A stretch of DNA of 64,000 nucleotides from Sulfuricurvum sp. (GTDB taxonomy: Bacteria; Campylobacterota; Campylobacteria; Campylobacterales; Sulfurimonadaceae): positions 139,796 to 203,795 of the forward strand of contig JAUYAU010000001.1 in assembly GCA_030693335.1 (NCBI GenBank), read 5' to 3'. Position numbers and translations under genes: made by a program. A model generated the notes under the pieces. That model searched no databases. It was not told where the DNA came from and saw only the letters and a list, made by a program, of their open reading frames with translations. The stretch's first letter is position 1. Every line of letters begins with the position of its first letter. Below are positions 30,393 to 44,799 of the stretch, piece after piece.

Positions 30393-31709
30393 ATGCAAAA
30401 ATTGCTGCTCTTAATCGCTTTTTTTACTTCATTGGCTCATGCGGATGAATTGAAATCTAAAATTGATCATATTATTGTCATCTATTTGGAAAACCGCAGT
30501 TTTGATAACCTTTTTCGGGGTTTTGAGGGGGCTGATACTTCGGATCATCCAAGTAAACCGTATGCATTGCAACGCGATCGAAATGGGATCGTCTATAACC
30601 AGCTTCCTATGGGAGAAGAAGCGCTAAAACTTGGTTTTGCTCAAAGTGTAGCGAATGAACCGTTTTTGATAGACCAAACAGTCTCTCAAGAGGAAATCAT
30701 CCCTGATATGGTACACCGTTTTTATCAAAATCAGCTACAGATTAATGGGGGCAAGAACGATCGATTTGTTGACATTAGTGATGAAAAAGGACTCACGATG
30801 GGCTACCACGATATGCGCAACAGTGCGTTGTGGAAGTATGCAAAAGAATACACGCTGTGCGATCAGTTTTTTGCGGCGGCGTTTGGAGGCTCTTTCCTGA
30901 ACCACCAATGGCTCATAGCGGCACGCACGCCGTATGTGGGAAATGAATCTAATATTTCTAAATATGAACTTGATTCAAGGGGTGAAATCATTCGGGATGG
31001 GATACTCACACCTGATGGGTATGCGGTCAATACGATTCAGCCTTTTCATCCGCCCTTCAAAGCCAAATACGCCGATGAGAAGATGCGATTACAGCCTTTG
31101 ACCTACGATACGATCGGTGATCGCCTCAGTGCGAAGAAAATCTCGTGGAGCTGGTACAGCGGCGGATACGATGAGGCGCAGGAGGGCAAAGGTGATATTA
31201 TAAAATATCAATATCACCATAACCCGTTTTTGTATTTTGCCAACTATGCTCCAAATACCCAAGGCAGAGGACATCTCAAAGATGAAAAGTTTTTTTTCAG
31301 CGAGTTGCGTGAGGGAAAACTGCCAAGTGTTGTTTTCTTCAAACCCGCGGCTTCTGACAATCAGCATCCCGGATACGCGAGCGTGAAGGCCGCCGATGAA
31401 AAACTGCGCCACATCGTAGAATCAATTCAGGCAAACCAAAAGGTTTGGGGCAAGTCGGTGATTATTATCACGTACGATGAGAACGGTGGATTATGGGATC
31501 ATGTGGCACCGCCAAAAATAGATCGTTGGGGTCCAGGAACACGTATACCCGCCATCATCATCTCGCCCTATGCCAAACGGGGGTACGTCGATCATACGGT
31601 TTACGATACTACTTCTATTTTAAAAATGATTGAGCAGCGTTATGATCTCAAGCCGCTTACTGACCGAGATAAAAATTCGAATGCACTCAAGGTAATGGAA
31701 AAAAAATAG
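30393..31709 (+). CDS. Secreted phosphoesterase (phospholipase C / acid phosphatase AcpA family)
   Basis: This exported protein of 438 residues has a clear signal peptide (cleavage near AHA, residue 17). Family motifs are HIIVIYLENRSFDNLF (metal ligands Glu-Asn), FGGSFLNHQW with the His region, and TYDENGGLWDHVAPP (Asp-Glu and Asp-His). Members hydrolyse phosphate mono- or diesters including phospholipids. The protein is shorter than Pseudomonas PlcH types and lacks their C-terminal repeats. It is probably periplasmic and used for phosphate scavenging; the substrate is open. Confidence 0.88.
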   Translation: MQKLLLLIAFFTSLAHADELKSKIDHIIVIYLENRSFDNLFRGFEGADTSDHPSKPYALQRDRNGIVYNQLPMGEEALKLGFAQSVANEPFLIDQTVSQEEIIPDMVHRFYQNQLQINGGKNDRFVDISDEKGLTMGYHDMRNSALWKYAKEYTLCDQFFAAAFGGSFLNHQWLIAARTPYVGNESNISKYELDSRGEIIRDGILTPDGYAVNTIQPFHPPFKAKYADEKMRLQPLTYDTIGDRLSAKKISWSWYSGGYDEAQEGKGDIIKYQYHHNPFLYFANYAPNTQGRGHLKDEKFFFSELREGKLPSVVFFKPAASDNQHPGYASVKAADEKLRHIVESIQANQKVWGKSVIIITYDENGGLWDHVAPPKIDRWGPGTRIPAIIISPYAKRGYVDHTVYDTTSILKMIEQRYDLKPLTDRDKNSNALKVMEKK

Positions 31710-31714
31710 TCCAA

Positions 31715-31966
31715 TCACTCTTTACGCGTAATGTTGTACAAAAAGCGAAATACTTCCGCAACGGCAATGTAAAGTTTTTCAGGGATTTCTTTATCGAGTT
31801 CTACTTTGCTTAAAAGTTCAACGAGGTCTTCGTCTTGTTGGATAGGAAGATTGTGCAGTTGCGCAATCTTGATGATATTTTCGGCCGTTGCTCCTTTGCC
31901 CGTTGCAATGACACGGGGAGAGTCTTCTTTTGATGGGTCGTATCTTAAAGCTACCGCTTTTTTCAT
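31715..31966 (-). CDS. FlhB C-terminal-domain homologue (FlhX type)
   Basis: This 83-residue protein resembles the cytoplasmic tail of the flagellar export switch FlhB/EscU: AVALRYD, PRVIATGKGATAENIIKIA, LHNLPIQQDEDLVELL, and IPEKLYIAVAEVFRFLY. The membrane part and the autocleavage NPTH are absent. Such paralogues in Campylobacterota can partly stand in for the processed FlhB tail. It overlaps the FliK-like gene by 4 bases, which supports a joint role in export specificity switching. Confidence 0.88.
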   Translation of the reverse strand: MKKAVALRYDPSKEDSPRVIATGKGATAENIIKIAQLHNLPIQQDEDLVELLSKVELDKEIPEKLYIAVAEVFRFLYNITRKE

Positions 31967-33231
31967 GCCATTACCTCAAATCCTGATTCAAAATCAGTAT
32001 CCTCTGGCGTATAAGCAGTCGTAGAGGGTGCTTGGGACTCTGTGGCGTCATATACTCGTATAGCTCTAGGATTTATACCAGCTTGTGTCAAAAGGGTTCT
32101 GAGGGTGCTTAGATGCTCTTTTATGAGATCTTTGAACTGGGAATTTTCAGTGTGCGCTTGTATCTCGAGCTGATTTCCTTCATACAGCGCCATCATGAGA
32201 TCAATCTTTCCGTATTCTTTGAGCTGAAGATGCACTTCGCAATAAAACTTTTTTTCTTCACGTTTTTTGAATGCAAGAGATCCTTCTTCGAGTATATCCC
32301 ATGAAAAGGGGAAATACAGCGTGTTAGAAGCATCAAGATGGGAAAGCAGCTGATGATAATCAATATGGGTAATGAGTTTATCGATTTGAGTCTGTACGTC
32401 ATTGGAAGGGGGCGTTGCGAGTGTTTTAATCTCTTCTCCCAGCTTCAGAAGTTGAGATTTGACATCGTTTGATAAATGTTCTTCCAATTGGGTTTGAATC
32501 AAAAGCTTTTCGGGGTTTGTAAATGGCGTTAATTGTTTGATGGTTGTACGAACTTCTTCTACTGCTTTGGCTTCAGAAGGTGTCTGTGGATCGATTTTTG
32601 GGAGGATACGTTCAATCGCATCGGTAAGCGTTTGGACACTTTTGATGAGAACGCGTGCGGATCCCATATCTTCACCGGCTTTTGTCAAAACAGGATGTTC
32701 TAAAAATTCTGCGAGACTTTGAGCAATATTTTTGGTTTCACTGTGAGGGGTTTGAGCCAATGCGTGCTGAAGATTTTGAAGTGTTTCACGAATCAGGGGC
32801 ATCGTTTGTATGGCTGATGCGATTTTTGATTCCATAAAAATTCCGGAATTGGCAACTTTTTCTTTTAAAACAGGGGCATTGAGGGTTGTGATGGATTGCA
32901 GGGAACTTTCGAGTTTAGAGAGCTTTACTGCAAGGTTTGGTGGTAAATTTGGTTCTGCTTTTAGGGTTGTTACGACATTTTTGAGTTCTTGCGTAAAGTT
33001 TCCAAACTGTTTAAAGGCACTGCTGTTTTTGAGAATATCCAGAAGGACTTGATCGGATTTCGTGTTTGAAATTTTGGATTGAAAAAGGGAACTAACGATG
33101 GATTTGAGATCTTTGCCCTCTTTTAACAGTTCCAATTGCCCAGGAGTGGCTTGTTGAAGCGCGAGGCTGAGTGCTTTGTTTTGATGGGGCATCAAAATAG
33201 ACATTTTTGCATCGGGCTTTAGAGTTATCAT
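31963..33231 (-). CDS. FliK-like flagellar hook-length control protein
   Basis: This 422-residue protein has a long, helical, low-complexity N-terminal part (about 1-290). The C-terminal domain of FliK type has the pattern VHLQLKEYGKIDLMMALYEGNQLEIQAHTEN followed by a helical end. No membrane segment is present. In flagellar assembly FliK measures hook length and triggers the FlhB switch. The partner encoded 4 bases overlapping downstream is the FlhB tail homologue, which makes this assignment convincing despite weak sequence conservation. Confidence 0.75.
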   Translation of the reverse strand: MITLKPDAKMSILMPHQNKALSLALQQATPGQLELLKEGKDLKSIVSSLFQSKISNTKSDQVLLDILKNSSAFKQFGNFTQELKNVVTTLKAEPNLPPNLAVKLSKLESSLQSITTLNAPVLKEKVANSGIFMESKIASAIQTMPLIRETLQNLQHALAQTPHSETKNIAQSLAEFLEHPVLTKAGEDMGSARVLIKSVQTLTDAIERILPKIDPQTPSEAKAVEEVRTTIKQLTPFTNPEKLLIQTQLEEHLSNDVKSQLLKLGEEIKTLATPPSNDVQTQIDKLITHIDYHQLLSHLDASNTLYFPFSWDILEEGSLAFKKREEKKFYCEVHLQLKEYGKIDLMMALYEGNQLEIQAHTENSQFKDLIKEHLSTLRTLLTQAGINPRAIRVYDATESQAPSTTAYTPEDTDFESGFEVMA

Positions 33232-33259
33232 GGTTGTAGTTTAGCACAGAGAAGTGAAT

Positions 33260-34021
33260 TTATATCCCTCTGTTCTTCTTGATCATCTCATACGCGCCAT
33301 TGATCTCTTGCACCTTGGCCGTTGCCGCTTGGATGTAATCCTCACTGGAGCCTTGTGCTTTGACAATATCAGGATGGTACTGTTTTACGAGGGCGCGATA
33401 GGCTTTTTTGAGCTCATCATTGCTAGCTTCTTTGGTGATTCCCAAAAGGGCGTAGGCTTGATCGATGGAGCTTTCCTTGACGCTTTTGTGGTGAAACGAT
33501 CCAAATTGCTCCAACATTGCGGCCAGTTCGTTGGCATTGAAATGTAAAAATGCGGCGATTTTTGCAAGCATCGCTTCTTCACTGTGGCTGAGGGTTCCGT
33601 CGATGTAAGCGAGATTGACGAGAAACTGCATCATCTGGATACGCTTGTGCGAATCGTTTTGGATGATGGCATACAAGGCATGTGCTACGGTATCGAGATT
33701 ATGAGGTACTTGTTTTTCAATATCAAAAATTTCTTTGAGAAGTTGTTTGGCGGTTTGCGGATCGGGAAAAAGTGAGCTGATATCGTTAAACATATTGCCA
33801 ACCAGTTCAGCTTCGAGCTCATCGACTCTTCCGTCAGCTTTGGCAACTTTTGCCGTAAGTGCGACAAAAAGCCCCAGTTCGCTTTTAGCAAGGGATTCTC
33901 GTGTGAGGACAAAACCTCTAAACTGTTTTTGAGAATATTCGCTTCCTTCATATTTCGAATACCCTTTGGATATCCAATAAAAAACGACTGCGAGAAGGAT
34001 AAAAAGTAAAATCTGTGTCAT
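33260..34021 (-). CDS. DjlA-like co-chaperone (TerB and J domains)
   Basis: This 253-residue membrane-anchored protein has a transmembrane helix at 4-19. A TerB/DjlA-type central helical domain follows (about 45-160; [29 protein letters not shown]). The C-terminal J domain has the invariant HPD ([12 protein letters not shown]). It should recruit DnaK at the inner membrane. The order matches DjlA. It precedes photolyase with an 81-base gap and probably is a separate unit. Confidence 0.9.
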
Positions 34022-34102
34022 GGTGTCTCCAAAAAAAATGAAAATAGAAATGGCATAATAGCAATAAATGGATAATGAATGCGATGATTCTCACACACCG
34101 AA

Positions 34103-35419
34103 CTAAAGGGAGCTTTTAAAATACTCCAACGCTTTTTTAGAACTCTCTTTATGATCAACGATGGGCATGGGGTATTGGTCCTTGTTGCCATCGAGGTGTT
34201 TGTGGATGTAACGTCCCTCTTTATCAAACTTTTCACTTTGGGTATAGGGATTGAAGATACGAAAATAAGGTTGTGGATCAACTCCTGTTCCGGCACTCCA
34301 TTGCCAAGAGAGGATGTTGCTTGCCGCATCATAATCGTTGAGATGCTGAGCAAAAAATTGTTCTCCCCATTGCCATGGCAACAGCAGGTTTTTGGTGAAA
34401 AACGAGGCGCAAATCATCCGTACGCGGTTGTGCATCTCTCCTGTTTCCAAGAGTTCTTGAACACCTGCATCGACAATGGGGACACCTGTACGTGCGGTGC
34501 AAAAGGCTTTGAAATAGTCGTCGTTGGGTATCCCCTCAAAGCGGTAGCGAAAATTTTGAGTAGCCAGATGAGGGAAGTGGTACAGCAGCATCGCGTAAAA
34601 ATCACGAAAAATGAGTTGTCGAAAAAAGGGTTCGGTATCCGTTCCTGACTTTTTTTGTTGTGTCAGCCAACGCAGTACGGCACGGATGGAAAGGGTTCCA
34701 AACCGCAGATCGGTACTGAGATATGAGGTGGCTTCTTTAATCATGTAATCACGATCATGTGCATAGGCCGCGAGTTTTGAGGCAAATTCTGTGAGCTTTT
34801 GCTGGGGGGTCATGGTGTGATGAGGTGTCAGTGTCTGTGGTTCGAAGCCGATGGATTCTAGGCAAACAGGGTAGGTGGTATGGGTATTTTTATCAATACG
34901 ATGCATAAGCGTATAATCAAAGTCGATTAGGCTCTGTCTGCAAGGAATGCATTCGTCCATGTGTTCAGGGGTAAAGAGGGTTTTGGCACAGTTGTAAAAG
35001 GGGGTAAACACTTGATAGGGCGTTTTGTCTTTTTTGAGCACTTCATCGGGTTTAAAGATATAGGTGTCGTGCAGATACGTAAACTCAATGAGATGAGAAA
35101 TCTCACAGTCACGCTCCAGAGCATAGGCATCATAATCACCCGAGGCACATACGTCATGATAGGAACTGTTTTGTAACAGCCAACCAAAGACATCGGCAGG
35201 TTTACCGTAAAAAATGGCCAGATCAAGACCTCGCGTACGCAAGGCGGATTTGAGATGCACAAGTGCATTAAAGATAAAACTGACACGCCGATCATTTTTA
35301 CTCAAGGGCTCTAAGATGGTAGGATCAAAAATAAATATCGGGAGAACCTCACCCTCTTGGCACAGCAGAGGGTTGTCCTCCACTCTTAAATCCCTGCGAA
35401 ACCAAAGAATGCGCCGCAA
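34103..35419 (-). CDS. phrB: Deoxyribodipyrimidine photolyase
   Basis: This 438-residue class I photolyase repairs cyclobutane pyrimidine dimers with blue light. The N-terminal antenna domain (LWFRRDLRVEDNPL) is followed by the FAD domain with LRFGTLSIRAVLRW, FRYRFEGIPND, ARTGVPIVDAGVQELL, MHNRVRM, and WQWSAGTGVDPQPYFRIFNP. Tryptophans for electron transfer are present. It begins 2 bases after the DUF523/DUF1722 gene, its usual partner. It is part of a light-linked island that also holds LOV and BLUF receptors. Confidence 0.95.
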   Translation of the reverse strand: MRRILWFRRDLRVEDNPLLCQEGEVLPIFIFDPTILEPLSKNDRRVSFIFNALVHLKSALRTRGLDLAIFYGKPADVFGWLLQNSSYHDVCASGDYDAYALERDCEISHLIEFTYLHDTYIFKPDEVLKKDKTPYQVFTPFYNCAKTLFTPEHMDECIPCRQSLIDFDYTLMHRIDKNTHTTYPVCLESIGFEPQTLTPHHTMTPQQKLTEFASKLAAYAHDRDYMIKEATSYLSTDLRFGTLSIRAVLRWLTQQKKSGTDTEPFFRQLIFRDFYAMLLYHFPHLATQNFRYRFEGIPNDDYFKAFCTARTGVPIVDAGVQELLETGEMHNRVRMICASFFTKNLLLPWQWGEQFFAQHLNDYDAASNILSWQWSAGTGVDPQPYFRIFNPYTQSEKFDKEGRYIHKHLDGNKDQYPMPIVDHKESSKKALEYFKSSL

Positions 35420-35421
35420 GA

Positions 35422-36369
35422 TTATTTTCCGCTTTTGATATTAGAACGCAATGCAAGTGTTTTAGGATAAGGCTCTAAAAAAGTTTGTTCCAGTAAATAT
35501 TTTGTATCGTATTTTCGGGCATAAAGTTGTATGGTTGACAGAGGAACGATGAGAGGGATGATCTTATCAGCATAATCGCTAATTTGATCGTGGAGAGACT
35601 TTTTTTCACTTTTTGTAAGCTCTTTTTTGAAAAATCCTGCTAAATGATCGAGGACATTTCGGGTATGTTTGATGGAACTTTTACGGCTGATAGCGGTTTT
35701 AAATCCCAGTTCGTATTGCCCTAGCAATGCCTCAAACGACAGACCGCTTCGATTGGCAACGATGTTGCCTAATTCCCGATAAAGCTGTTCGTCTTTGGCT
35801 TGGAGCAAAAACTTATGTGCCGTATGAAACATAACGAGATCGTTTAGGGCAGGGGAGGCTGCTTTGAGTTTCTCAAACCGATCATACGCAAACACCTGCA
35901 TCACAAAATTTTCTCGCAGCCATGGGTCTTCGAGCCGCCCCTCTTCTTCCATCGGCAACAGGGGATAACGTTCGCGACACAGATGCATAAACACTCCATC
36001 CTCGCTGCCATTACTCATTCCATTTTCTAGGTAGAGTTTCGCGCTTTTCATTCCGCAGCTTGGAGATTTGGATTTAAAAATAATTCCACACAGAGCTTCA
36101 TGTTCGAGCTTTTCGAGTTCGTCATGGCTTGTTTGCATCAGTGCATCGGTCAGATCCTGCGTGGTTTTATTGGAATGTACTCTAATGGAATGATTAACCT
36201 TGACGAGACGAACGGTTGGTCGCGGTGTTCCAAAAGCCAGATGCTCAGGGCAAAAAGAGACAAATTGTGCAAATGCACCTAGCTCATCGGTGATAAAGCG
36301 ATTGTGCTTATGTCCCGCATCAAAGCGGATTTTTTCACCTAAGAGACATCCGGATACGGCGATTTTCAT
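35422..36369 (-). CDS. DUF523 and DUF1722 (YbgA-type) fusion protein
   Basis: This protein of 315 residues joins an N-terminal DUF523 domain (1-150: VSGCLLGEKIRFDAGHK, SPSCGMKSAKLY with its Cys residues) to a C-terminal DUF1722/YbgA domain (about 185-305: FHTAHKFLLQAKD, RNVLDHLAGFFK). YbgA lies next to phr in Escherichia coli and many other bacteria. The function is not established; the cysteines suggest a metal or thiol site. The ATG follows AAGGAAG. It is directly upstream of photolyase in one operon. Confidence 0.9.
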   Translation of the reverse strand: MKIAVSGCLLGEKIRFDAGHKHNRFITDELGAFAQFVSFCPEHLAFGTPRPTVRLVKVNHSIRVHSNKTTQDLTDALMQTSHDELEKLEHEALCGIIFKSKSPSCGMKSAKLYLENGMSNGSEDGVFMHLCRERYPLLPMEEEGRLEDPWLRENFVMQVFAYDRFEKLKAASPALNDLVMFHTAHKFLLQAKDEQLYRELGNIVANRSGLSFEALLGQYELGFKTAISRKSSIKHTRNVLDHLAGFFKKELTKSEKKSLHDQISDYADKIIPLIVPLSTIQLYARKYDTKYLLEQTFLEPYPKTLALRSNIKSGK

Positions 36370-36422
36370 GATACTTCCTTAAATAAACAGTATTGACTGC
36401 GTGATGGTATGTTTTTTATGAA

Positions 36423-37478
36423 CTATATTTTTCTAATAGGCTCCGCTGAGGGCTTTCCATAATAATACCCTTGCGCCAAATCCGCACCTTCCTGCGCGCA
36501 AAAATTTGCTTCTTCTGCTCGTTCAATACCTTCGGCTAAAACGATAATGTTATTTTCTTTTGCGATTTGTACAATTGCACGAAAAATGGATTGATTCACA
36601 ATGTTGATATCAATGTGATCGATAATGTCTCGATCAATTTTGACAATGTCAGGGAGAAGTTTAGCGATCATATTTAGCGATGAATAGCCGCTTCCCACAT
36701 CGTCAAGGGCTACCATGAATCCTTGTGATTTATAAAAATCAAGAATCTTTTTCAGATGATCCAAATCGGAGACATAATCACTTTCGATCACTTCAAAAAT
36801 TATGTTTTTTGGGTCAAAATCGAGTTGTTTTGCCCATTTTACCGTTGATTGGAGGCAGTGCTGGGGATCATAAATAGCTGTGGGGATAAAATTTATAAAT
36901 ACTTTGGAGGAAATGTTTTTTACGGCGGCTGTTTTGAGTGACGTTTCCCGGCATGCACGATCGAGATAAAAGAGCATATTGCCTTCGCGACCCCATCTAA
37001 AAAGGGTATCCGGATAAATTAAATTTCCATCATCACTTACTCCGCGAGCAAGAGACTCATATCCATAAATAGTATTGTTTTTCATGTTAACGATGGGTTG
37101 AAAGTGAGCGGTAAGCGCCCCTTTTTCAATGAGGGTAGAAAGTTCTGTTGCTCCCATCAAATCTCTGTATTGTTGCAGTGTCTTCATTAATTTAAGCGTT
37201 GAAGGAGAAAGTGACACTCCTTTTTCTAAGAACAGCAAACTAATCCCTTCTCGTTCTACTCGTGTAAAGTTATGAAAGGTACACAGTGCTTCTAAAAAAG
37301 AAAAAAACTCTTCTATATTAACCGATAAGGTTTCGGAATCTTCGATTTGATAATGAAATTCTTTGAGGGATAAGTAATCTTTAATCTTATCTGCAAGTTC
37401 GCTAACGGCACAGCTGATGATCACATTTCCTTCTGATTTAGGAATAGAAGGTAAGGTTTGGCATTTTAGACAGCTCAT
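36423..37478 (-). CDS. EAL-domain cyclic-di-GMP phosphodiesterase, divergent from the BLUF gene
   Basis: This 351-residue cytosolic protein has an N-terminal ~105-residue region with CLKC at 3-6 and no clear fold, followed by an EAL domain. The signature reads ESL in YGYESLARG. Most catalytic or metal residues are kept: the Asn in FINFIP, IFEVIESD, LDDVGSGYSS, VKID, LAEGIE and QGYYYGKP, so activity is plausible. It is transcribed away from a stand-alone BLUF photoreceptor gene 134 bases off. In BlrP1 and E. coli BluF the two domains are fused, suggesting this pair is a split light-regulated phosphodiesterase. That link is inference. Confidence 0.88.
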   Translation of the reverse strand: MSCLKCQTLPSIPKSEGNVIISCAVSELADKIKDYLSLKEFHYQIEDSETLSVNIEEFFSFLEALCTFHNFTRVEREGISLLFLEKGVSLSPSTLKLMKTLQQYRDLMGATELSTLIEKGALTAHFQPIVNMKNNTIYGYESLARGVSDDGNLIYPDTLFRWGREGNMLFYLDRACRETSLKTAAVKNISSKVFINFIPTAIYDPQHCLQSTVKWAKQLDFDPKNIIFEVIESDYVSDLDHLKKILDFYKSQGFMVALDDVGSGYSSLNMIAKLLPDIVKIDRDIIDHIDINIVNQSIFRAIVQIAKENNIIVLAEGIERAEEANFCAQEGADLAQGYYYGKPSAEPIRKI

Positions 37479-37612
37479 GAGAAACCTTTTTTGTTTGTAT
37501 TATAGAAGAGTTCTTCGTTTATTGGTAGGTTTAAAATGTCAATTGCAATAGATTGTACGCCTATTGTGTCCACTAATAGTGTAAAATTAAAAAAAAATTT
37601 AAAAGGAAATGA
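37479..37612. promoter_or_regulatory. Divergent EAL/BLUF promoter region
   Basis: A perfect minus-strand TATAAT (37499-37504) lies 20 bases ahead of the EAL start. On the plus strand a weaker TGTAAAAT sits about 30 bases before the BLUF start, which has AAAAGGAAA as ribosome-binding site. No dyad or tandem repeat stands out. Confidence 0.5.
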
Positions 37613-38017
37613 TTGAAACGTTTAATTTACAGTAGTATCGCTTCGGATGATGTAGATTTTGATACTGTCGGGGAGATTCTAACGCATGCAGTGAAGAGAA
37701 ACAAAGAGAAATCCATTACAGGTATGATGATATACGATGGTCACTCTTTTCTTCAATGCATTGAAGGAGATGATCTGGTAATCAATAAGTTGTGGGAAAA
37801 ACTGAACACAGACCAAAGACACCATTTTCTTCATATCAATGGAGAGGAACATGATGAAAAACGGTTGTTCTCAAACTGGAATATGGGGTACATGAACAAT
37901 AGCCATGAGATACAAGAGATGATACGCAAAGTGACAGGACGTGAAAGCGCATCTTTTGAAACTTTGAGTTATCCCCATGCAAAGGTCCTATTGCTACAAC
38001 TTTCTTTTCTCCTCTAG
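37613..38017 (+). CDS. Stand-alone BLUF-domain blue-light receptor
   Basis: The 134 residues are almost wholly one BLUF domain, which binds FAD non-covalently. The key photocycle residues are all in place: Tyr6 (RLIYSS), Asn30 (KRNKEKSITGMM), Gln48 (FLQCIEG), Trp89 and Met91 (WNMG). A short helical tail (100-134) may contact a partner. The start is TTG at 37613, seven bases downstream of AAAAGGAAA; the nearby ATG is out of frame. There is no fused output domain, so it must act on another protein, with the divergent EAL protein as first candidate. It converges with the GGDEF-EAL gene. Confidence 0.93.
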   Translation: MKRLIYSSIASDDVDFDTVGEILTHAVKRNKEKSITGMMIYDGHSFLQCIEGDDLVINKLWEKLNTDQRHHFLHINGEEHDEKRLFSNWNMGYMNNSHEIQEMIRKVTGRESASFETLSYPHAKVLLLQLSFLL

Positions 38018-38038
38018 TGTTAGCAAAAATGGAAAAAT

Positions 38039-40129
38039 TTATTGCAATTTGTTTTTTAGCAAATTGATTAGATTTTCTTTGTTAATGGGTCTGGAATGAA
38101 TATAGCCTTGGATAAAACTCACTCCATTTTCGGCTAAAAATTGTTGTTGCTGGTCAGTTTCTACCCCTTCTGCAACTGTTTTAAGCCCCAATGCTTTGGA
38201 TAAAGCAACAATACTTTTGATGACAGTAGCCCCTTTTTCATCAATGCCGATTTTACGTATAAACGATTGGTCTATTTTTAAAATATCAACATCAAAATCC
38301 AGTAAATAGCTTAGAGATGAATACCCGGTTCCAAAATCATCGAGTGCTACTTTGATACCGATTTTGTGCAACTCGTGTATGATTTCTTTGGCTAAAAGAA
38401 TATCTTGCATGAGTTGGTTCTCAACAATTTCTAGAACTAAATGTTTTGGCTTAATACCGGATGATTGTATCATCGTTCGCAGTGTTGTTATAAAGTTTGG
38501 CATAAACAAAGTTTCGGTTGTAATATTGGCGGAAACACTCTGCGGTGCAATGTTAAGTGTTTCAAGCTCTCTGAATGTATCGAGTACCGTCTGTATGACC
38601 CAAAGATCAATATCGATCATGAGACCTGCTTTTTGGGCAATAGGTAAGAAATCATTGGGAGAGATCAACCCTTTTTTGGGATGATCCCATCGGATTAACG
38701 CCTCCATGCCAGTATAAGTTTGCGTATTGATTTCGTATAAAGGCTGATAAAATACAATGAGGTTATTGTTCTCAATGGCTGATTTTAACTCACTTCCTAT
38801 ACGAATATAGTCATTCGCCTTGTCCGTCATATGAGAGGAATAAAATCCAAATTGATGACGTCCTGCTTCTTTGGATGCGTACATTGCCGCATCAGCACTG
38901 CTGAGCAGTATTTCTGCTGTTTGGCCGTCTTGCGGATAAATACTAATACCGATACTGCAGGTACTAAATATTTTTTGTTCGTTGATGAGAAATGGTTCTT
39001 TGAATTGTTTTTGTATTTTTTCAGCTACCGAGGCGAAGTGTGTATCCGAGGCACCATTATCGATGATGAGTACAAATTCATCGCCACCTGTGCGGGCAAT
39101 AGTGTCCCCTTTTCGAATGACATTTTGTAGTCGTTTTGCCACTTGAACAAGAAGCAGATCGCCAGTGAGATGTCCTAGAGAATCGTTTACTTCTTTGAAA
39201 TGATCCAAGTCGACAAAAAAGATGGCGAACAGCTCACCGGAGCGGCTTTTATTTTCCACCATGTGATTAATACGGTCATCGAGCAATCGACGGTTAGGCA
39301 GATGCGTAAGTGCATCGTGCATTGAAAGATGTTGAAGTTTTTTAGTTTCGGTATCCAGTTGATTTTGAATAGAGACGTATTCCGTCATATCGTGTGTCGT
39401 CTCTAAATAGGCGATAATTTTTCCATCTTGATCAAAAATAGGTTTTGTGTGGACATCAACATCATGTTTTATACCGTGAGCATCGGTATGAATTTTTCGA
39501 AGTATTACCGATTTTTTTGTCGTATGGATGAGCCCCATGGCACACTGATTGTGCTGCCCACTGCAAGGAACAGAATTTTGATGAGAAATTTCGTAGCATT
39601 TTGGAAGATCTTTATTAGAAATATCACCTGAAAACTCTTTGGCTGCTTTGTTCATCATGCTTACGGTATGGTCGGGCAATATATAGAGGATAGGATCAGG
39701 CATTTCATCCATAATGGTTTGCATCATTTTACGAGAATCATCCAGTGATTTTTCAAGCGTCAGGATACGTGCTATTTTTTCCAAGGCAGTGAGTAAGAGG
39801 TGAGGATTGGTGGGTTTTAAAATATAGCTATCGACATGCAGTGCAATAGCTTTGATAAGCAAATGGGTGTCACTGAAAGCAGAATTGACAATAATGGGAA
39901 GATTGGGAGCTGATTCACGCATACGGGCAATCATCTCTAAACCACCAATTTTAGGTATTTGAATATCGGTTAGAACAATATCGGGAGACATTTTTTTAAA
40001 AAGGTCCAAGCCTTCTTCTCCATCGTTGGCGATGTAAATAATTTTAAAATATTCAGCAAAGGCACTGTGAAAAGCACGAACGGTTTCATCGTTATCTTCA
40101 ACGTATAAGAGTGAATAATTTTTAAGCAT
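38039..40129 (-). CDS. Response regulator with PAS, GGDEF and EAL domains
   Basis: This 696-residue cytosolic protein has a receiver (phosphoacceptor Asp55 in IVLTDIQIP), a PAS domain (about 135-255), a GGDEF cyclase domain with intact GGDEF at 348-352 and an RKGD I-site before it, and an EAL domain with intact EAL at 476-478, DDFGTGYSSLSYL, AEGVET and QGYIHSRP. Both catalytic halves look functional, so it could make or break cyclic di-GMP depending on phosphorylation. Its ATG overlaps the end of the CheB-CheR-kinase gene by 8 bases, so that kinase is its likely phosphodonor. It is the last gene of the LOV operon. Confidence 0.93.
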   Translation of the reverse strand: MLKNYSLLYVEDNDETVRAFHSAFAEYFKIIYIANDGEEGLDLFKKMSPDIVLTDIQIPKIGGLEMIARMRESAPNLPIIVNSAFSDTHLLIKAIALHVDSYILKPTNPHLLLTALEKIARILTLEKSLDDSRKMMQTIMDEMPDPILYILPDHTVSMMNKAAKEFSGDISNKDLPKCYEISHQNSVPCSGQHNQCAMGLIHTTKKSVILRKIHTDAHGIKHDVDVHTKPIFDQDGKIIAYLETTHDMTEYVSIQNQLDTETKKLQHLSMHDALTHLPNRRLLDDRINHMVENKSRSGELFAIFFVDLDHFKEVNDSLGHLTGDLLLVQVAKRLQNVIRKGDTIARTGGDEFVLIIDNGASDTHFASVAEKIQKQFKEPFLINEQKIFSTCSIGISIYPQDGQTAEILLSSADAAMYASKEAGRHQFGFYSSHMTDKANDYIRIGSELKSAIENNNLIVFYQPLYEINTQTYTGMEALIRWDHPKKGLISPNDFLPIAQKAGLMIDIDLWVIQTVLDTFRELETLNIAPQSVSANITTETLFMPNFITTLRTMIQSSGIKPKHLVLEIVENQLMQDILLAKEIIHELHKIGIKVALDDFGTGYSSLSYLLDFDVDILKIDQSFIRKIGIDEKGATVIKSIVALSKALGLKTVAEGVETDQQQQFLAENGVSFIQGYIHSRPINKENLINLLKNKLQ

Positions 40130-43100
40130 TAGGGGATACTTTCAGAGAAATAGTTGTTTTCATTCCGTCGTTTAGTGATTCCATTGCAATGGAGCCATTC
40201 ATACTGTTTTCAATAATCATTTTACTCATATATAGTCCAATTCCCGTTCCCTCTTTTTTTTCTTTGGTTGTAAAGTAGGGCTCAAATAAACGACCAATTA
40301 ATTCTTGGGGTACACCTCCACCGTTATCTACAATAATCATGCAAACGGTGTCATCGTCACACTCTACATTGATGCGTATGGTTCCATTTTGGTTTAATGT
40401 TTTGTTTATGGCATCTTTTGAATTATTGAAAACATTGAGTAATACCTGAGCAAATTCATTTTCAAACCCATAAATCTGTGCATCATTTTGATCGTCATAT
40501 TGGATAACAATACCCTGATTATCAAAGGTATCTTTGACAAAAGAGATGGTTCTTGTGGTGATTTCATAGAGTGAGAAAAGCTTTTTTGATTTATTAGGAT
40601 TGAAAAAATCTCTAAAATCATCAATGGTTGAAGACATGTGCTGTATGTTGTTTTGAGAATCTTCGACAAAGGCGGAAAACGAAGTATCATTAATGGTTTT
40701 ATTCTCGAATTTTTTTTGTATCCCAAAAAGATTTAAGGCTAAGGTGTTGAGAGGCTGTCGCCATTGATGGGCGATATTGCCGATCATCTCCCCCATACTA
40801 GCAAGTTTGGATTGCTGGAACATCAGTTCTTGGTTTCGGATAATGTCGGTTTTATCCGTGAAGCTTATGATAACACCGTAATCGTTTGTAGAGAGATTGA
40901 TTCGTTTGATTTGAAGCCAATAGATTCGCTGATCAATGGTCAAATCGTATTGAATCTCATTGGTGTTTTGTACCACTTTTTTAATGTCGTCAAAAAGATT
41001 TGGTATAGGGAAGTGCTCATTGATTATGATTTCACTGAGATTGATTCGGCTGGCGTTGGCAATTTCAAAAAATTTCTCAACCCCTTTGGTATGAAGAAAT
41101 AAATCAAGATTTTTATCCAAAATCAAGACATCGGTATTGATCACTTCGACAACTTTATTCAATGCTTCATTTACAAATGCCAGCTCACTGTTTTTATGTT
41201 CAAATTCATCGTTGACGGTACGCAGTTCCTCATTGGTGCTTTGCAGCTCTTCATTGGAGGTTTCAAGCTCTTCATTGGTACTTTGGAGCTCTTCGTTTGT
41301 ACTTTGGAGTTCTTCATTCGTGGATTGAAGCTCTTCGTTAGAGGTTTCGAGCTCTTCGATGGTGATTTGGAGACGTTCTTTGAGCGCCGAAAGTTCATTT
41401 TCGAGAATATTGAAATCATATCCATCGACGGTTTGTGGTTGATAAGAAGAAAGTTGGTGGGAAGTGTCTTTTTCATTAATATCATCAAAGGTGATAAAAA
41501 AACTGTTTTCAGACAGCTTGTTACGCCCCAGAGGAAATGCAGTTATAACGACGTAGTTACGCTCATCGCCCAAAGGTAATATGCGGATTTTTTTTGAGAC
41601 TACCGTTTGTTCGTTACGGATCACTTCACTGAGGGTTGCCCGCATGTCAAGACGTAAAAAATCAGATACTTGTTTATAAATATCGTTGGTAACAAGCCCT
41701 TGCGGATTAGAGATGTATTTGTTTTCACCTTTGAAAAACAAAATGGTTCCACTGCTGTCCACAACAACGCCATTGACTGCGAAAAAAGAGGTAACGGCAC
41801 TGTTGATGGAGGCATTTACGTCTAAGCTATTAACTTCGTCGCGTAATTTTTTAGAACCACGTTTGAACTCTTTTTTCTGAAAATACGCTAAACCTTCGAT
41901 GTCTACAACACCTGTGTCATTGGATTTGCGATAGATTTTGTATTTGTTGTCAACAATCGAAAAAAGATTAGTCAGCGTACCGATAGTTTCAGAAGATCCT
42001 AAAAACATGAGCCCTTGATAGCGCAGTGCATAGTAAAAAATACTCTGAACCCTCTGTTGCAAATCGGGATTAAAATAGATTAATAGATTTCGGCAGCTGA
42101 CAAAATCAAGACTCAAAAAGGGTGGATCTTTGATGACGTCATGTTTGGAAAAGACGATCATGTCACGGATACTTTTGATAGGGGTGTAACGTTGATTTTT
42201 TTCCACAAAATAGAGCTTAATAAGTTCTGGATGGACATGACTCACCTCCTCGACGCTAAAGCTTCGGCTTCGTGCTTCATCGATAGCTTCTTCGCTGACA
42301 TCGGTTGCGAAAATAGTTACTTTTTTGGTCATCCCCATTTTTTTGAGAAGTTCGCTTGTAACGATAGCGATGGAATACGCTTCATCTCCAAAAGCACATC
42401 CTGCTACCCACATACGAACGAGATTATCAAGTTTATCGGTGAGCATTTTCTCTAAGTGGGACTCAAGTGCGGCAAAAGCTTCTTTGTCTCTAAACAAAGA
42501 AGTGACGATAATCAGAAGCTCTTTTTTGAGATTCATAATTTCTGCTGGGGAGCGCTGGAGAAGTGTGATGTATTCATCGACACTTTCGGATTTAGTCTCC
42601 GTAATTCTTCGCTCCAGTCGGCGATGAATAGTCGCCTCTTTGTAATCGCTAAAATCAACATCGCCTTTGTGATTTAACAGACTAAAGACTTTATCGATGT
42701 TGTCCAATACATCGAAATGGCGATCAAAATAACTGGGGTCATCGATAGCGGATATGATCCCTTGCGCTAGAAGTTCAGGGGGAAGAACTGCATCGACGGC
42801 TTGTGTGTCGATCGCTGCTTTTGGCATTGAAAAATATTTAGCATTTTCATTTTGTGCTAGAGCGATTCCCCCGTTTTGTTTGATGGCCACAATCCCCTCT
42901 GCACCATCACTACCCGTACCGCTTAGGATGATTCCGATTGCTTTTTCTTTTTTTTCCAGAGCCAGTGATTTCAAAAAACGGTTAACAGAGGGTTTTGGAT
43001 ATGGTTTAAGTGGGGGAACCATCAAAAGAAATTGCCCATTTTCGATGACAAGGTCAAAATTAGGGGGACAAAAATAGATCGTATTCCCTTTTGGTTCCAT

Positions 43101-43328
43101 TGTATTTGTGATTTGAATAATGGGAATTTTGGAATATTTTTGCAGTAATGTGCCTAAAAGGGTAGGTTGTTTTGGATCAAGATGTTGCGTGATTATGTAA
43201 GTAATAGCATCGGAGGGTTCGATGTTTTGTATAAATTTTAAAAGAGCTTCAAATCCTCCCGCACTTGCCCCTAATCCAACGAGGGTTAAACTCTTGTATT
43301 CATTGGTGAGAATTGTTTTTTTTGCCAT
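40122..43328 (-). CDS. CheB-CheR-PAS-histidine kinase fusion
   Basis: This 1068-residue protein starts with a CheB methylesterase domain (1-190; Ser22 in GASAGGFEA, His49 in ITQHLDP, Asp in GTGSDGAEG). A CheR methyltransferase follows (about 210-480; HRRLERRI, VAGCAFGDEAYS with the SAM site). Next are a PAS region, a coiled coil of repeated STNEEL units (about 660-710) and another PAS. HisKA has His854 in IAHQWRQPLNTL, and HATPase has DNGGGVP and GTGIGLYM. There is no CheB receiver domain, so the esterase is not controlled in the classical way. It starts 4 bases after the LOV gene and overlaps the response regulator downstream. Such fusions are known, but inputs are mostly undefined. Confidence 0.92.
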   Translation of the reverse strand: MAKKTILTNEYKSLTLVGLGASAGGFEALLKFIQNIEPSDAITYIITQHLDPKQPTLLGTLLQKYSKIPIIQITNTMEPKGNTIYFCPPNFDLVIENGQFLLMVPPLKPYPKPSVNRFLKSLALEKKEKAIGIILSGTGSDGAEGIVAIKQNGGIALAQNENAKYFSMPKAAIDTQAVDAVLPPELLAQGIISAIDDPSYFDRHFDVLDNIDKVFSLLNHKGDVDFSDYKEATIHRRLERRITETKSESVDEYITLLQRSPAEIMNLKKELLIIVTSLFRDKEAFAALESHLEKMLTDKLDNLVRMWVAGCAFGDEAYSIAIVTSELLKKMGMTKKVTIFATDVSEEAIDEARSRSFSVEEVSHVHPELIKLYFVEKNQRYTPIKSIRDMIVFSKHDVIKDPPFLSLDFVSCRNLLIYFNPDLQQRVQSIFYYALRYQGLMFLGSSETIGTLTNLFSIVDNKYKIYRKSNDTGVVDIEGLAYFQKKEFKRGSKKLRDEVNSLDVNASINSAVTSFFAVNGVVVDSSGTILFFKGENKYISNPQGLVTNDIYKQVSDFLRLDMRATLSEVIRNEQTVVSKKIRILPLGDERNYVVITAFPLGRNKLSENSFFITFDDINEKDTSHQLSSYQPQTVDGYDFNILENELSALKERLQITIEELETSNEELQSTNEELQSTNEELQSTNEELETSNEELQSTNEELRTVNDEFEHKNSELAFVNEALNKVVEVINTDVLILDKNLDLFLHTKGVEKFFEIANASRINLSEIIINEHFPIPNLFDDIKKVVQNTNEIQYDLTIDQRIYWLQIKRINLSTNDYGVIISFTDKTDIIRNQELMFQQSKLASMGEMIGNIAHQWRQPLNTLALNLFGIQKKFENKTINDTSFSAFVEDSQNNIQHMSSTIDDFRDFFNPNKSKKLFSLYEITTRTISFVKDTFDNQGIVIQYDDQNDAQIYGFENEFAQVLLNVFNNSKDAINKTLNQNGTIRINVECDDDTVCMIIVDNGGGVPQELIGRLFEPYFTTKEKKEGTGIGLYMSKMIIENSMNGSIAMESLNDGMKTTISLKVSPNA
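41220..41352 (-). repeat. Tandem 21-bp units encoding the STNEEL coiled coil
   Basis: About six imperfect 21-base units within the kinase gene encode repeats such as ELQSTNE and ELETSNE, a heptad pattern. They form the signalling coiled coil between the CheR/PAS part and the kinase core. The repeat is coding, in frame, and typical of CheB-CheR fusion proteins. Confidence 0.8.
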
Positions 43329-43332
43329 ACGT

Positions 43333-44052
43333 TTATACTATTCCTTTGATTTGTTGCAATATTTTTTGCAGAGAGGTAACATCTTTTTGAACTCCAAGAA
43401 AATATTTTAATTTGTGTGTTTTTTTATCGAAAATAGGGCTTATAGTCACTTCATTGTAAATGAGTTGTCCCTCTTTGTGATAATTGCGTAGTATGACGGT
43501 GACATCGGTTTTTACTTTAATGGCGTATCGGATCTCATCCAGAGCCAATTGATCTCGGTCATCTCGCTGCAAAAAACGACAGTTTTTATCCAGTGCTTCT
43601 TCCGATGTATATCCAAACAATGAGGTAAAAGCATGATTGACATAAATAATCGGATTATCAAATTTGTTGGGATCGCTAATGGTGATCCCATTTTTGGCCT
43701 GATCCAATATCTCTATAAGATAATCTTTGAAATCGGGGATACTTTCCTCATTTTTCATCAATGCATAACGTCCGCCATAATAGTTAACGATAGTTAAGCA
43801 TGGAAGCTTTATACGAAGATTGCTAATTAAATTACGTATATGTTTGGGATTATAGTCATTATTGTCATCATCCCATATAGAGTAAAAAAAATCGGCAGGT
43901 GCAATAGGTTTACCATGATGATCAATAAAGATTTTAAGCAATTTTCTCATTTTAGAAGAGAGCATAACAGAATGATTGTTTAAGCTAACGGTTTGAGAAG
44001 TTTGATCCCAATAGCATTCGTGTGTTAATTTTATCATGAGCTGTTTATCCAT
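43333..44052 (-). CDS. Winged-helix/LOV blue-light-responsive candidate transcription factor
   Basis: This 239-residue protein has an OmpR-type winged-helix domain at about 10-98 (RNLISNLRIKL recognition helix, YYGGRYAL wing) and a LOV domain at about 118-228. The LOV core NCRFLQ (157-162) keeps the photoreactive Cys158. FMN-contact residues Arg159, Gln162, Asn190 (RNYHKEG), Asn200 and Gln222 (GVQKDVT) are all present. Blue light should form a Cys-FMN adduct and change DNA binding. No receiver domain is present. The order DNA-binding then LOV differs from EL222 (LOV then LuxR-type HTH). The ATG has a poor ribosome-binding site. It heads the operon with the CheB-CheR kinase and the GGDEF-EAL regulator and borders the lipid/redox operon, its probable target. 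Confidence 0.9.
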   Translation of the reverse strand: MDKQLMIKLTHECYWDQTSQTVSLNNHSVMLSSKMRKLLKIFIDHHGKPIAPADFFYSIWDDDNNDYNPKHIRNLISNLRIKLPCLTIVNYYGGRYALMKNEESIPDFKDYLIEILDQAKNGITISDPNKFDNPIIYVNHAFTSLFGYTSEEALDKNCRFLQRDDRDQLALDEIRYAIKVKTDVTVILRNYHKEGQLIYNEVTISPIFDKKTHKLKYFLGVQKDVTSLQKILQQIKGIV

Positions 44053-44065
44053 TAGATTGGATTTT

Positions 44066-44097
44066 AGCCAAAGAGTGTCGTTGAAGTGCCTTTGGCT
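44066..44097. promoter_or_regulatory. Inverted repeat in the leader of the LOV gene, candidate autoregulatory site
   Basis: AGCCAAAG (44066-44073) and CTTTGGCT (44090-44097) are perfect inverted 8-mers with 16 bases between, 13 bases ahead of the LOV start codon. It could be an operator or an mRNA hairpin near the start. A possible -10 TATACT (minus strand, 44155-44160) lies upstream. The rest of the 237-base gap (44053-44289) shows no frame or other signal. Confidence 0.45.
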
Positions 44098-44289
44098 TTG
44101 ATCGTTTTGTATTTAGAGTTGTGAGTTCTGTAGGTAGAGGGGTTAAGTGAAAGAAGTATAGGCAATGTGGAATGTTTTTAGTATGCTTTTAATGTTGTTT
44201 GGTGCCCTTAATCAATAAAAAGAGCAGCTATAGAGACATATTTAAAGCTCAGCGAATGACATTCTAAATCAGTCGTCTAAGCAATATGA

Positions 44290-44799
44290 TTATGCATCTA
44301 CTTGAGAAACTTCCGATAAGGTAGCATAGCGACCACGACCTAAAAAGAGGGTGGGGTGTTCGTTAACACTATCGTTTAGATGAAGCGCTGTAACATCAGA
44401 AATAAAGATAGTGTGATCACCGTTTTTATACGTATCGATGATGGTGCATTCATAGACATAATCGGCTTGATCGATAATATGATTTCCGTGAACATCACTC
44501 GTTTTTGAACTTAATCCAGAGGTTGACAGTTTATCGACATCATTTCCATGTACTCTGCCGCATTGATCGATTGCATCATAGTGATCAAATGAGAGGAAAT
44601 TGAGGGTGAAACTACCATGTTCTTTGAGAAGAGTGTGGGTGAAGTTTTCTTCTCGTATTGCAATTGCGTAGCGAAACGGTTCACGACTGATCGGCATGTG
44701 CCATGAAAGGGCCATTAGATTGTTCTGGCATGATAAAATCGCCGCCACTCTGGGCTGTGAGGGCAATTTTTGAGGCAGCGGTTGGTAGCGTGTAAACAC
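44290..44799 (-). CDS. Flavin reductase-like FMN-binding protein
   Basis: This 169-residue protein has the split-barrel flavin-reductase fold: ILSCQNNLMALSWHMPISREPFRYAIAI near the N-terminus, FTLNFLSFDH, and the ending FLGRGRYAT. It should bind FMN and reduce it with NAD(P)H or donate it to a partner oxygenase. The start is GTG 44799 behind a strong AAGGAGAC. It is the last gene of the lipid/redox operon, 20 bases after DUF3833. A flavin-handling enzyme next to FMN- and FAD-based photoreceptors is suggestive, but a role with the operon's oxidoreductases is equally likely. Confidence 0.83.
   Translation of the reverse strand: MFTRYQPLPQKLPSQPRVAAILSCQNNLMALSWHMPISREPFRYAIAIREENFTHTLLKEHGSFTLNFLSFDHYDAIDQCGRVHGNDVDKLSTSGLSSKTSDVHGNHIIDQADYVYECTIIDTYKNGDHTIFISDVTALHLNDSVNEHPTLFLGRGRYATLSEVSQVDA

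What the first reader, a model, noticed from the sequence alone, without database searches (positions are those of the whole stretch)
36423..38017. BLUF receptor and EAL phosphodiesterase as a divergent, split pair
Seen: a complete BLUF domain (Tyr6, Asn30, Gln48, Trp89, Met91) with no output domain, head-to-head with an EAL protein that keeps most catalytic residues. Known: BLUF and EAL are fused in Klebsiella BlrP1 and E. coli BluF. Inference: the two proteins interact to make a light-controlled cyclic-di-GMP phosphodiesterase in trans. The EAL N-terminal ~105 residues with CLKC would be the docking part.
Basis: partly seen in the sequence, partly recalled or inferred. Interest (0 to 1): 0.65.

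Follow-up and report, generated by a model that had tools for sequence, protein, structure and literature searches.

The report
Light sensor beside signal-degrading enzyme
A small blue-light sensor gene sits head to head with a gene for an enzyme that should break down the signal molecule cyclic-di-GMP; comparison of related bacteria suggests the two work together as in one published example, but the enzyme belongs to an older family that usually has no light sensor.

Summary
A 134-aa BLUF protein (37613-38017, +) and a 351-aa EAL protein ("EALx", 36423-37478, -) are divergent, 134 bp apart. BLUF keeps Tyr6, Asn30, Gln48, Trp89 and Met91. EALx keeps all nine usual catalytic residues, not just "most". 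In the family (228 genomes), EALx is present in 12 of 16 genomes with a stand-alone BLUF, against 10 of 212 others. The excess persists within photolyase-bearing genomes and within two genera. None of the 4 genomes with BLUF fused to EAL has EALx. The genes are adjacent, or one gene apart, in 4 genomes. A short BLUF driving an EAL enzyme in trans is already published (PapB-PapA), so the mechanism is not new. Against an obligate pair: none of 44 EALx-bearing genomes from other groups has BLUF, and 10 of 22 within the family lack it. The N-terminal CLKC domain is not BLUF-specific: all 54 relatives scored carry CxxC or CxC there. EALx recurrently sits in a photoprotection gene island. Best reading: BLUF was recruited in a few lineages to an older, photoprotection-linked phosphodiesterase whose N-terminal domain senses something else. 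Direct contact is untested.

The parts
37613..38017 (+). Short BLUF blue-light receptor, 134 aa, TTG start, no output domain
36423..37478 (-). EALx: EAL phosphodiesterase, 351 aa, all nine usual catalytic residues
37155..37478 (-). N-terminal alpha/beta domain of EALx (residues 1-108) with CxxC at residues 3-6 and Cys23; no Pfam family; evolves faster (41-61% identity to orthologues) than the full protein (68-80%)
37479..37612 (.). 134-bp divergent intergenic region
35422..36369 (-). 2-thiouracil-desulfurase-like + DUF1722 protein, 53 bp downstream of EALx on the same strand; operon-like
34103..35419 (-). DNA photolyase, 2 bp downstream of the DUF1722 gene
38039..40129 (-). Response regulator-PAS-GGDEF-EAL protein, convergent with BLUF (21 bp gap); rival partner

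Best explanation
EALx is an active cyclic-di-GMP phosphodiesterase and BLUF is a short flavin photoreceptor that modulates it in trans. Blue light changes the BLUF C-terminal cap, BLUF contacts the EAL domain, and phosphodiesterase activity changes (by analogy with PapB-PapA and BlrP1), lowering c-di-GMP in light together with photolyase-based repair. The pairing is a lineage-specific recruitment. EALx belongs to an older family that mostly works without BLUF, and its N-terminal CxxC domain is a separate input (redox or metal, inferred), not the BLUF dock. Shown: gene anatomy, catalytic residues, co-occurrence, repeated BLUF-EAL linkage, the photoprotection island. Inferred: enzyme activity, contact, direction of the light effect, physiological output.
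For: Intact residues on both sides. Co-occurrence of stand-alone BLUF with EALx: 12 of 16 vs 10 of 212, p=3.2e-11; photolyase-positive genomes 9 of 13 vs 9 of 70, p=6.6e-5; photolyase-negative 3 of 3 vs 1 of 142, p=8.0e-6; genus g1 5 of 6 vs 6 of 35, p=0.003; genus g16 5 of 7 vs 4 of 128, p=7.2e-6. The BLUFs of the 12 genomes come from several BLUF clades. 0 of 4 genomes with BLUF fused to EAL have EALx. Adjacent or one gene apart in G000, G078, G081, G117; 4.3 kb apart in G048. BLUF-EAL linkage at 11 of 30 BLUF loci in the order, in about six separate places of the BLUF tree, including a BLUF-BLUF-EAL operon with overlapping genes in G333. Precedents PapB-PapA and BlrP1 (passages).
Against: 10 of 22 EALx genomes in the family have no BLUF; 0 of 44 EALx-bearing genomes outside it do; in the order sample only 2 of 34 EALx genomes outside the family have BLUF, and there the genes are far apart. 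G061 keeps BLUF beside photolyase and DUF1722 but has no EALx. In 7 of the 12 genomes with both, the genes are on different contigs. P-values are not corrected for relatedness. No complex was modelled and no assay exists. Annotated plasmid loci of short BLUFs in other groups showed no EAL neighbour in 5 of 5 looked at.
Confidence: 0.5

Rival explanations
1. The two genes are co-regulated members of a light/photo-oxidative-stress island and do not touch: BLUF acts on something else, EALx answers to its own N-terminal signal.
For: EALx sits with photolyase, DUF1722, lipocalin, ferrochelatase, UbiB, phasin, SRPBCC, glutathione peroxidase and LytS/LytTR genes also where no BLUF exists, e.g. Arcobacter loci L092-L094. 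EALx is associated with photolyase by itself (14 of 16 vs 69 of 212). G061 keeps BLUF in the island without EALx.
Against: The association persists within photolyase-positive and within photolyase-negative genomes; BLUF is repeatedly fused to or in operon with EAL in the same order.
Confidence: 0.3
2. BLUF regulates the convergent REC-PAS-GGDEF-EAL protein (38039-40129) rather than EALx.
For: It is the other immediate neighbour (21 bp). In G217 BLUF follows a GGDEF-EAL gene on the same strand, and in G054 BLUF is fused behind GGDEF-EAL.
Against: The orthologous block (REC-GGDEF-EAL, CheB/CheR kinase, LOV protein) occurs in G065 without any BLUF in that genome, and the BLUF loci of G078, G081 and G117 lack the block while keeping EALx.
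Confidence: 0.1
3. One reading: the N-terminal ~105 residues of EALx are the BLUF docking domain.
For: The domain evolves faster than the rest, as an interface might.
Against: The domain and its CxxC/CxC motif occur in 54 of 54 scored EALx relatives and 0 of 44 tested genomes outside the family have BLUF; BLUF is coupled to EAL proteins without it.
Confidence: 0.08

Closest known systems
PapB-PapA of Rhodopseudomonas palustris
   Same: Short BLUF protein without output domain and a separate protein with an EAL domain; PapB is reported to form a heterotetramer with PapA and to regulate it by blue light through its C-terminal helices (PMC8846402, passages).
   Different: EALx carries an N-terminal CxxC domain and lies in a photolyase operon-like cluster.
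BlrP1 (Klebsiella pneumoniae), BLUF-EAL in one chain
   Same: BLUF controls an EAL phosphodiesterase through the EAL dimer interface (PMC3989770, passages); EAL catalytic residues intact.
   Different: Two separate genes here. BLUF-EAL fusions of that type exist in the same family (G036, G224, G226) and those genomes lack EALx.
E. coli BluF (YcgF)
   Same: BLUF linked to EAL (architecture recalled).
   Different: BluF's EAL is recalled as degenerate and acting on the repressor BluR; EALx has all catalytic residues.
RimA and the Vibrio cholerae stand-alone EAL (6ifq)
   Same: Closest named EAL relatives by sequence: NF052265 195.3 bits, 6ifq 176.2 bits.
   Different: They match only residues 122-348 or so; neither match reaches the N-terminal domain, and the RimA cut-off (430 bits) is not reached.
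Short LOV photoreceptor with adjacent LitR effector (Pseudomonas mendocina)
   Same: A short photoreceptor acting in trans on an effector encoded next door (PMC9758184, start of abstract in the listing).
   Different: LOV and a LitR/CarH-family regulator instead of BLUF and EAL.

Membership tests
BLUF (PF04940) | Score above the curated cut-off | tested here: met
   84.4 bits vs cut-off 25
BLUF (PF04940) | Photochemical Tyr, Asn, Gln, plus Trp and Met | tested here: met
   Y6, N30, Q48, W89, M91
BLUF (PF04940) | Flavin binding and red-shifted photocycle | not testable with these tools
   needs purified protein
EAL phosphodiesterase (PF00563) | Score above the curated cut-off | tested here: met
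   179.8 bits vs 31.3
EAL phosphodiesterase (PF00563) | Metal- and substrate-binding residues | tested here: met
   E141, N196, E229, E232, D259, D260, K280, E316, Q336 invariant in 16 of 16
EAL phosphodiesterase (PF00563) | Hydrolysis of cyclic-di-GMP | not testable with these tools
   needs enzyme assay
PapB-PapA type (short BLUF plus separate EAL) | Short BLUF without output domain and a separate EAL protein encoded in linkage | tested here: met
PapB-PapA type (short BLUF plus separate EAL) | Co-inheritance of the two genes | tested here: met
   12 of 16 vs 10 of 212 in the family; not outside it
PapB-PapA type (short BLUF plus separate EAL) | Physical complex and light-dependent phosphodiesterase activity | not testable with these tools
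   no complex prediction offered; needs biochemistry
PapB-PapA type (short BLUF plus separate EAL) | Homology of EALx to PapA over its full length | not tested
   no PapA sequence was obtained
BlrP1-type fused BLUF-EAL | Both domains in one chain | tested here: not met
   two genes on opposite strands
RimA (NF052265) | Score above the equivalog cut-off | tested here: not met
   195.3 bits vs 430

The most novel reading that the evidence does not exclude
EALx is a dual-input phosphodiesterase: its N-terminal CxxC domain reads thiol redox state or a metal, and the divergent BLUF adds blue light in trans, so that one enzyme of a photolyase gene cluster integrates light and photo-oxidative stress into cyclic-di-GMP. 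The CxxC-EAL family would be a widespread, uncharacterised redox/metal-sensing phosphodiesterase class onto which BLUF was grafted in a few lineages.
Probability: 0.2. Interest if true: 0.6.

Novelty: new member of a known kind. Interest (0 to 1): 0.4.

Why it matters
If the pair works as inferred, it is a further naturally split blue-light-controlled cyclic-di-GMP phosphodiesterase, in chemolithotrophic Campylobacterota that are not usually thought of as light-responsive. It shows how a short photoreceptor can be recruited to an existing signalling enzyme. It also points to a conserved CxxC-EAL family spread over several phyla, tied in Campylobacterota to photoprotection genes, whose input signal is unknown and testable.

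Tried and rejected
Fold of the N-terminal domain: AlphaFold2 model (mean pLDDT 82, CxxC end poorly placed). Foldseek best E 0.028 and VIA-align best Z 6.8 (80 aligned, rmsd 5.8) hit a mixture of ferredoxin-like and PII-like chains; not diagnostic. No BLUF chain stood in the lists shown, which excludes nothing. The full-length model (mean pLDDT 82.4) matched EAL structures in general. Pfam: no family for the window's N-terminal domain, only scattered weak hits among orthologues.

c14, an unannotated 121-aa protein near BLUF or EALx in some loci, was tested as a third part and rejected as obligatory: 14 of 228 genomes have it, not G000.

A shared promoter motif in the divergent region was not found: consensus promoters in 34000-44300 were fewer than in shuffles (22 vs 29.5), and the four-row alignment showed nothing clear beyond the start regions. 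Rfam: nothing in 31000-44000.

First co-occurrence test used the N-terminal domain only (17 genomes matched, the G062 fragment dropped; 9 of 16 vs 7 of 212 genomes, p=2.7e-8). It missed G022, G023, G191, G131, G140 and G193, found with the full protein at E<=1e-50; the second test is the one reported. Genus sizes (41 and 135) were inferred from handle numbers. Dropped from the BLUF locus count: G455, below the family cut-off. The BLUF of G509 was missed by my ORF caller and placed by the search coordinates.

One search examined genomes of 44 of the 79 loci; the rest were own-family genomes or distant EAL matches. One search examined 57 of those 79 loci; 3 gave no scored row.

Two alphaproteobacterial plasmid relatives of EALx (Niveispirillum, Indioceanicola) had no BLUF in the stretches fetched.

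Literature: searches listed no paper whose title or abstract start is on this pair or on EALx in Campylobacterota; the two papers were not read. Passages only were read of PMC8846402, PMC5899715 and PMC3989770. Whether other split BLUF-EAL systems are in print was not searched beyond.

Full report
Observation. The window lies in a Sulfuricurvum-like genome of 2.17 Mb. A 134-aa BLUF gene on the plus strand (37613-38017) and a 351-aa EAL gene on the minus strand (36423-37478) face away from each other across 134 bp. Pfam scores are 84.4 bits (BLUF) and 179.8 bits (EAL). EALx has E141, N196, E229, E232, D259, D260, K280, E316 and Q336, invariant in 16 of 16 orthologues and in the aligned places of solved EAL domains; which positions are catalytic is recalled. 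Both proteins therefore look functional.

Surroundings. Downstream of EALx on the same strand come a desulfurase-DUF1722 gene (53 bp) and a photolyase (2 bp), an operon-like arrangement. On the other side are a REC-PAS-GGDEF-EAL gene, a CheB-CheR-kinase gene and a 239-aa winged-helix protein with a LOV-like PAS domain. In relatives EALx sits with photolyase, DUF1722, lipocalin, ferrochelatase, UbiB-type kinase, phasin-like protein, SRPBCC protein, glutathione peroxidase, an amine-oxidase-like flavoprotein and a LytS/LytTR pair. This island recurs in Arcobacter (L092-L094), where no BLUF was found in the genome.

Is the pair real? In the family, 20 of 228 genomes have BLUF. In 4 of these BLUF is fused to EAL (G054, G036, G224, G226), leaving 16 with a stand-alone BLUF. 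EALx (E<=1e-50, 45% identity or more) is in 22 of 228. Twelve of the 16 have EALx against 10 of 212 others (p=3.2e-11). Photolyase was used as a marker of light exposure: among photolyase-positive genomes it is 9 of 13 against 9 of 70 (p=6.6e-5), among negative ones 3 of 3 against 1 of 142 (p=8.0e-6). Within the two main genera it is 5 of 6 against 6 of 35 (p=0.003) and 5 of 7 against 4 of 128 (p=7.2e-6). None of the 4 fusion-bearing genomes has EALx. These tests do not correct for relatedness.

In the 12 genomes with both genes, they are adjacent and divergent in G000, G078 and G081, one gene apart on the same strand in G117, 4.3 kb apart in G048, and on different contigs in G051, G107, G109, G110, G022, G023 and G191. 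The BLUF of G117 is in a different clade of the BLUF tree from that of G000, so adjacency probably arose at least twice.

Across the order, 30 BLUF loci were examined: 24 in the family and 6 more from a sample of 398 genomes. Four are fused to EAL. Of the other 26, 7 have an EAL gene within two genes, against 10 of 271 background genes (p about 3e-5; with fusions 11 of 30, p about 5e-9). They lie in about six separate places of the BLUF tree. G333 has a BLUF-BLUF-EAL operon in which a 246-aa EAL gene overlaps a BLUF gene, a layout like that of a split BLUF-EAL system.

Evidence against an obligate pair. Ten of 22 EALx genomes in the family lack BLUF. Of 44 EALx-bearing genomes from other groups (Campylobacterota outside the family, Trichlorobacter, Myxococcus, cyanobacteria, Bacillus and others), none has BLUF. 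In the order sample, 34 genomes outside the family have EALx and 2 of these (G509, G534) have BLUF, some 0.8 Mb or more away. G061 keeps BLUF beside photolyase and DUF1722 but has no EALx. Short BLUFs on 5 annotated plasmids of other groups had no EAL neighbour.

The N-terminal domain. It has no Pfam family and a predicted alpha/beta fold of beta-alpha-beta-beta-alpha-alpha-beta type whose structural matches are generic. C3, C6 and Cys23 are invariant in the 16 close orthologues. CxxC (47) or CxC (7) is present in 54 of 54 scored relatives from several phyla, while Cys23 is not kept in, for example, the Arcobacter and cyanobacterial rows. A module kept without BLUF is unlikely to be mainly a BLUF dock. 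A redox or metal input is the simplest guess, not shown.

Mechanism. PapB, a short BLUF protein, forms a heterotetramer with the EAL protein PapA and passes the light signal through its C-terminal helices; BlrP1 signals through the EAL dimer interface (PMC8846402 and PMC3989770, passages). The window's pair fits this best: BLUF in trans on the EAL domain of EALx. Confidence is 0.5, because linkage and co-inheritance show a functional link, not contact. The main rival is co-regulation inside a photoprotection island; the minor one is control of the neighbouring REC-PAS-GGDEF-EAL protein, whose block is BLUF-free in G065.

Verdict. The wider CxxC-EAL family and its photoprotection context are the less expected part.

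Noticed in passing
window 43333-44052 (-): A 239-aa protein joins an OmpR-type winged-helix domain (Trans_reg_C 28.2 bits) to a LOV-like PAS domain with NCRFLQ (YtvA_fam 143.7 bits over that part): a possible one-component blue-light transcription factor, a third flavin photoprotein type within 10 kb.
   Followed up: partly
L042:635-2290 (-) and L043:4963-6618 (-): A 551-aa PAS/LOV-PAS-GGDEF protein near EALx in G081 and G078, where EALx and BLUF are adjacent; one PAS has a LOV-like NCRYLRG stretch.
   Followed up: no
L163:8663-10323 (-): BLUF-BLUF-EAL operon with a 246-aa EAL gene overlapping the second BLUF gene, in another family of the order (G333): a second split BLUF-EAL layout.
   Followed up: partly
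L164, L166, L167: In 3 of 4 Arcobacteraceae BLUF loci a ferredoxin-thioredoxin-reductase/rhodanese gene lies next to BLUF.
   Followed up: no
L059:9939-10343 and L076:9970-10386: BLUF proteins with the photochemical Gln replaced by His (G019), and in G078's second copy also Asn by Thr: possibly altered or dead photochemistry.
   Followed up: no
L170:9384-10449: In G191 the CxxC N-terminal part of EALx lies in a neighbouring frame just upstream of the EAL part: a frame break or an assembly error.
   Followed up: no
L042:4309-4677 and L049:3856-4212: An unannotated 121-aa protein (c14) recurs near BLUF or EALx; 14 of 228 genomes have it, not the window's.
   Followed up: partly
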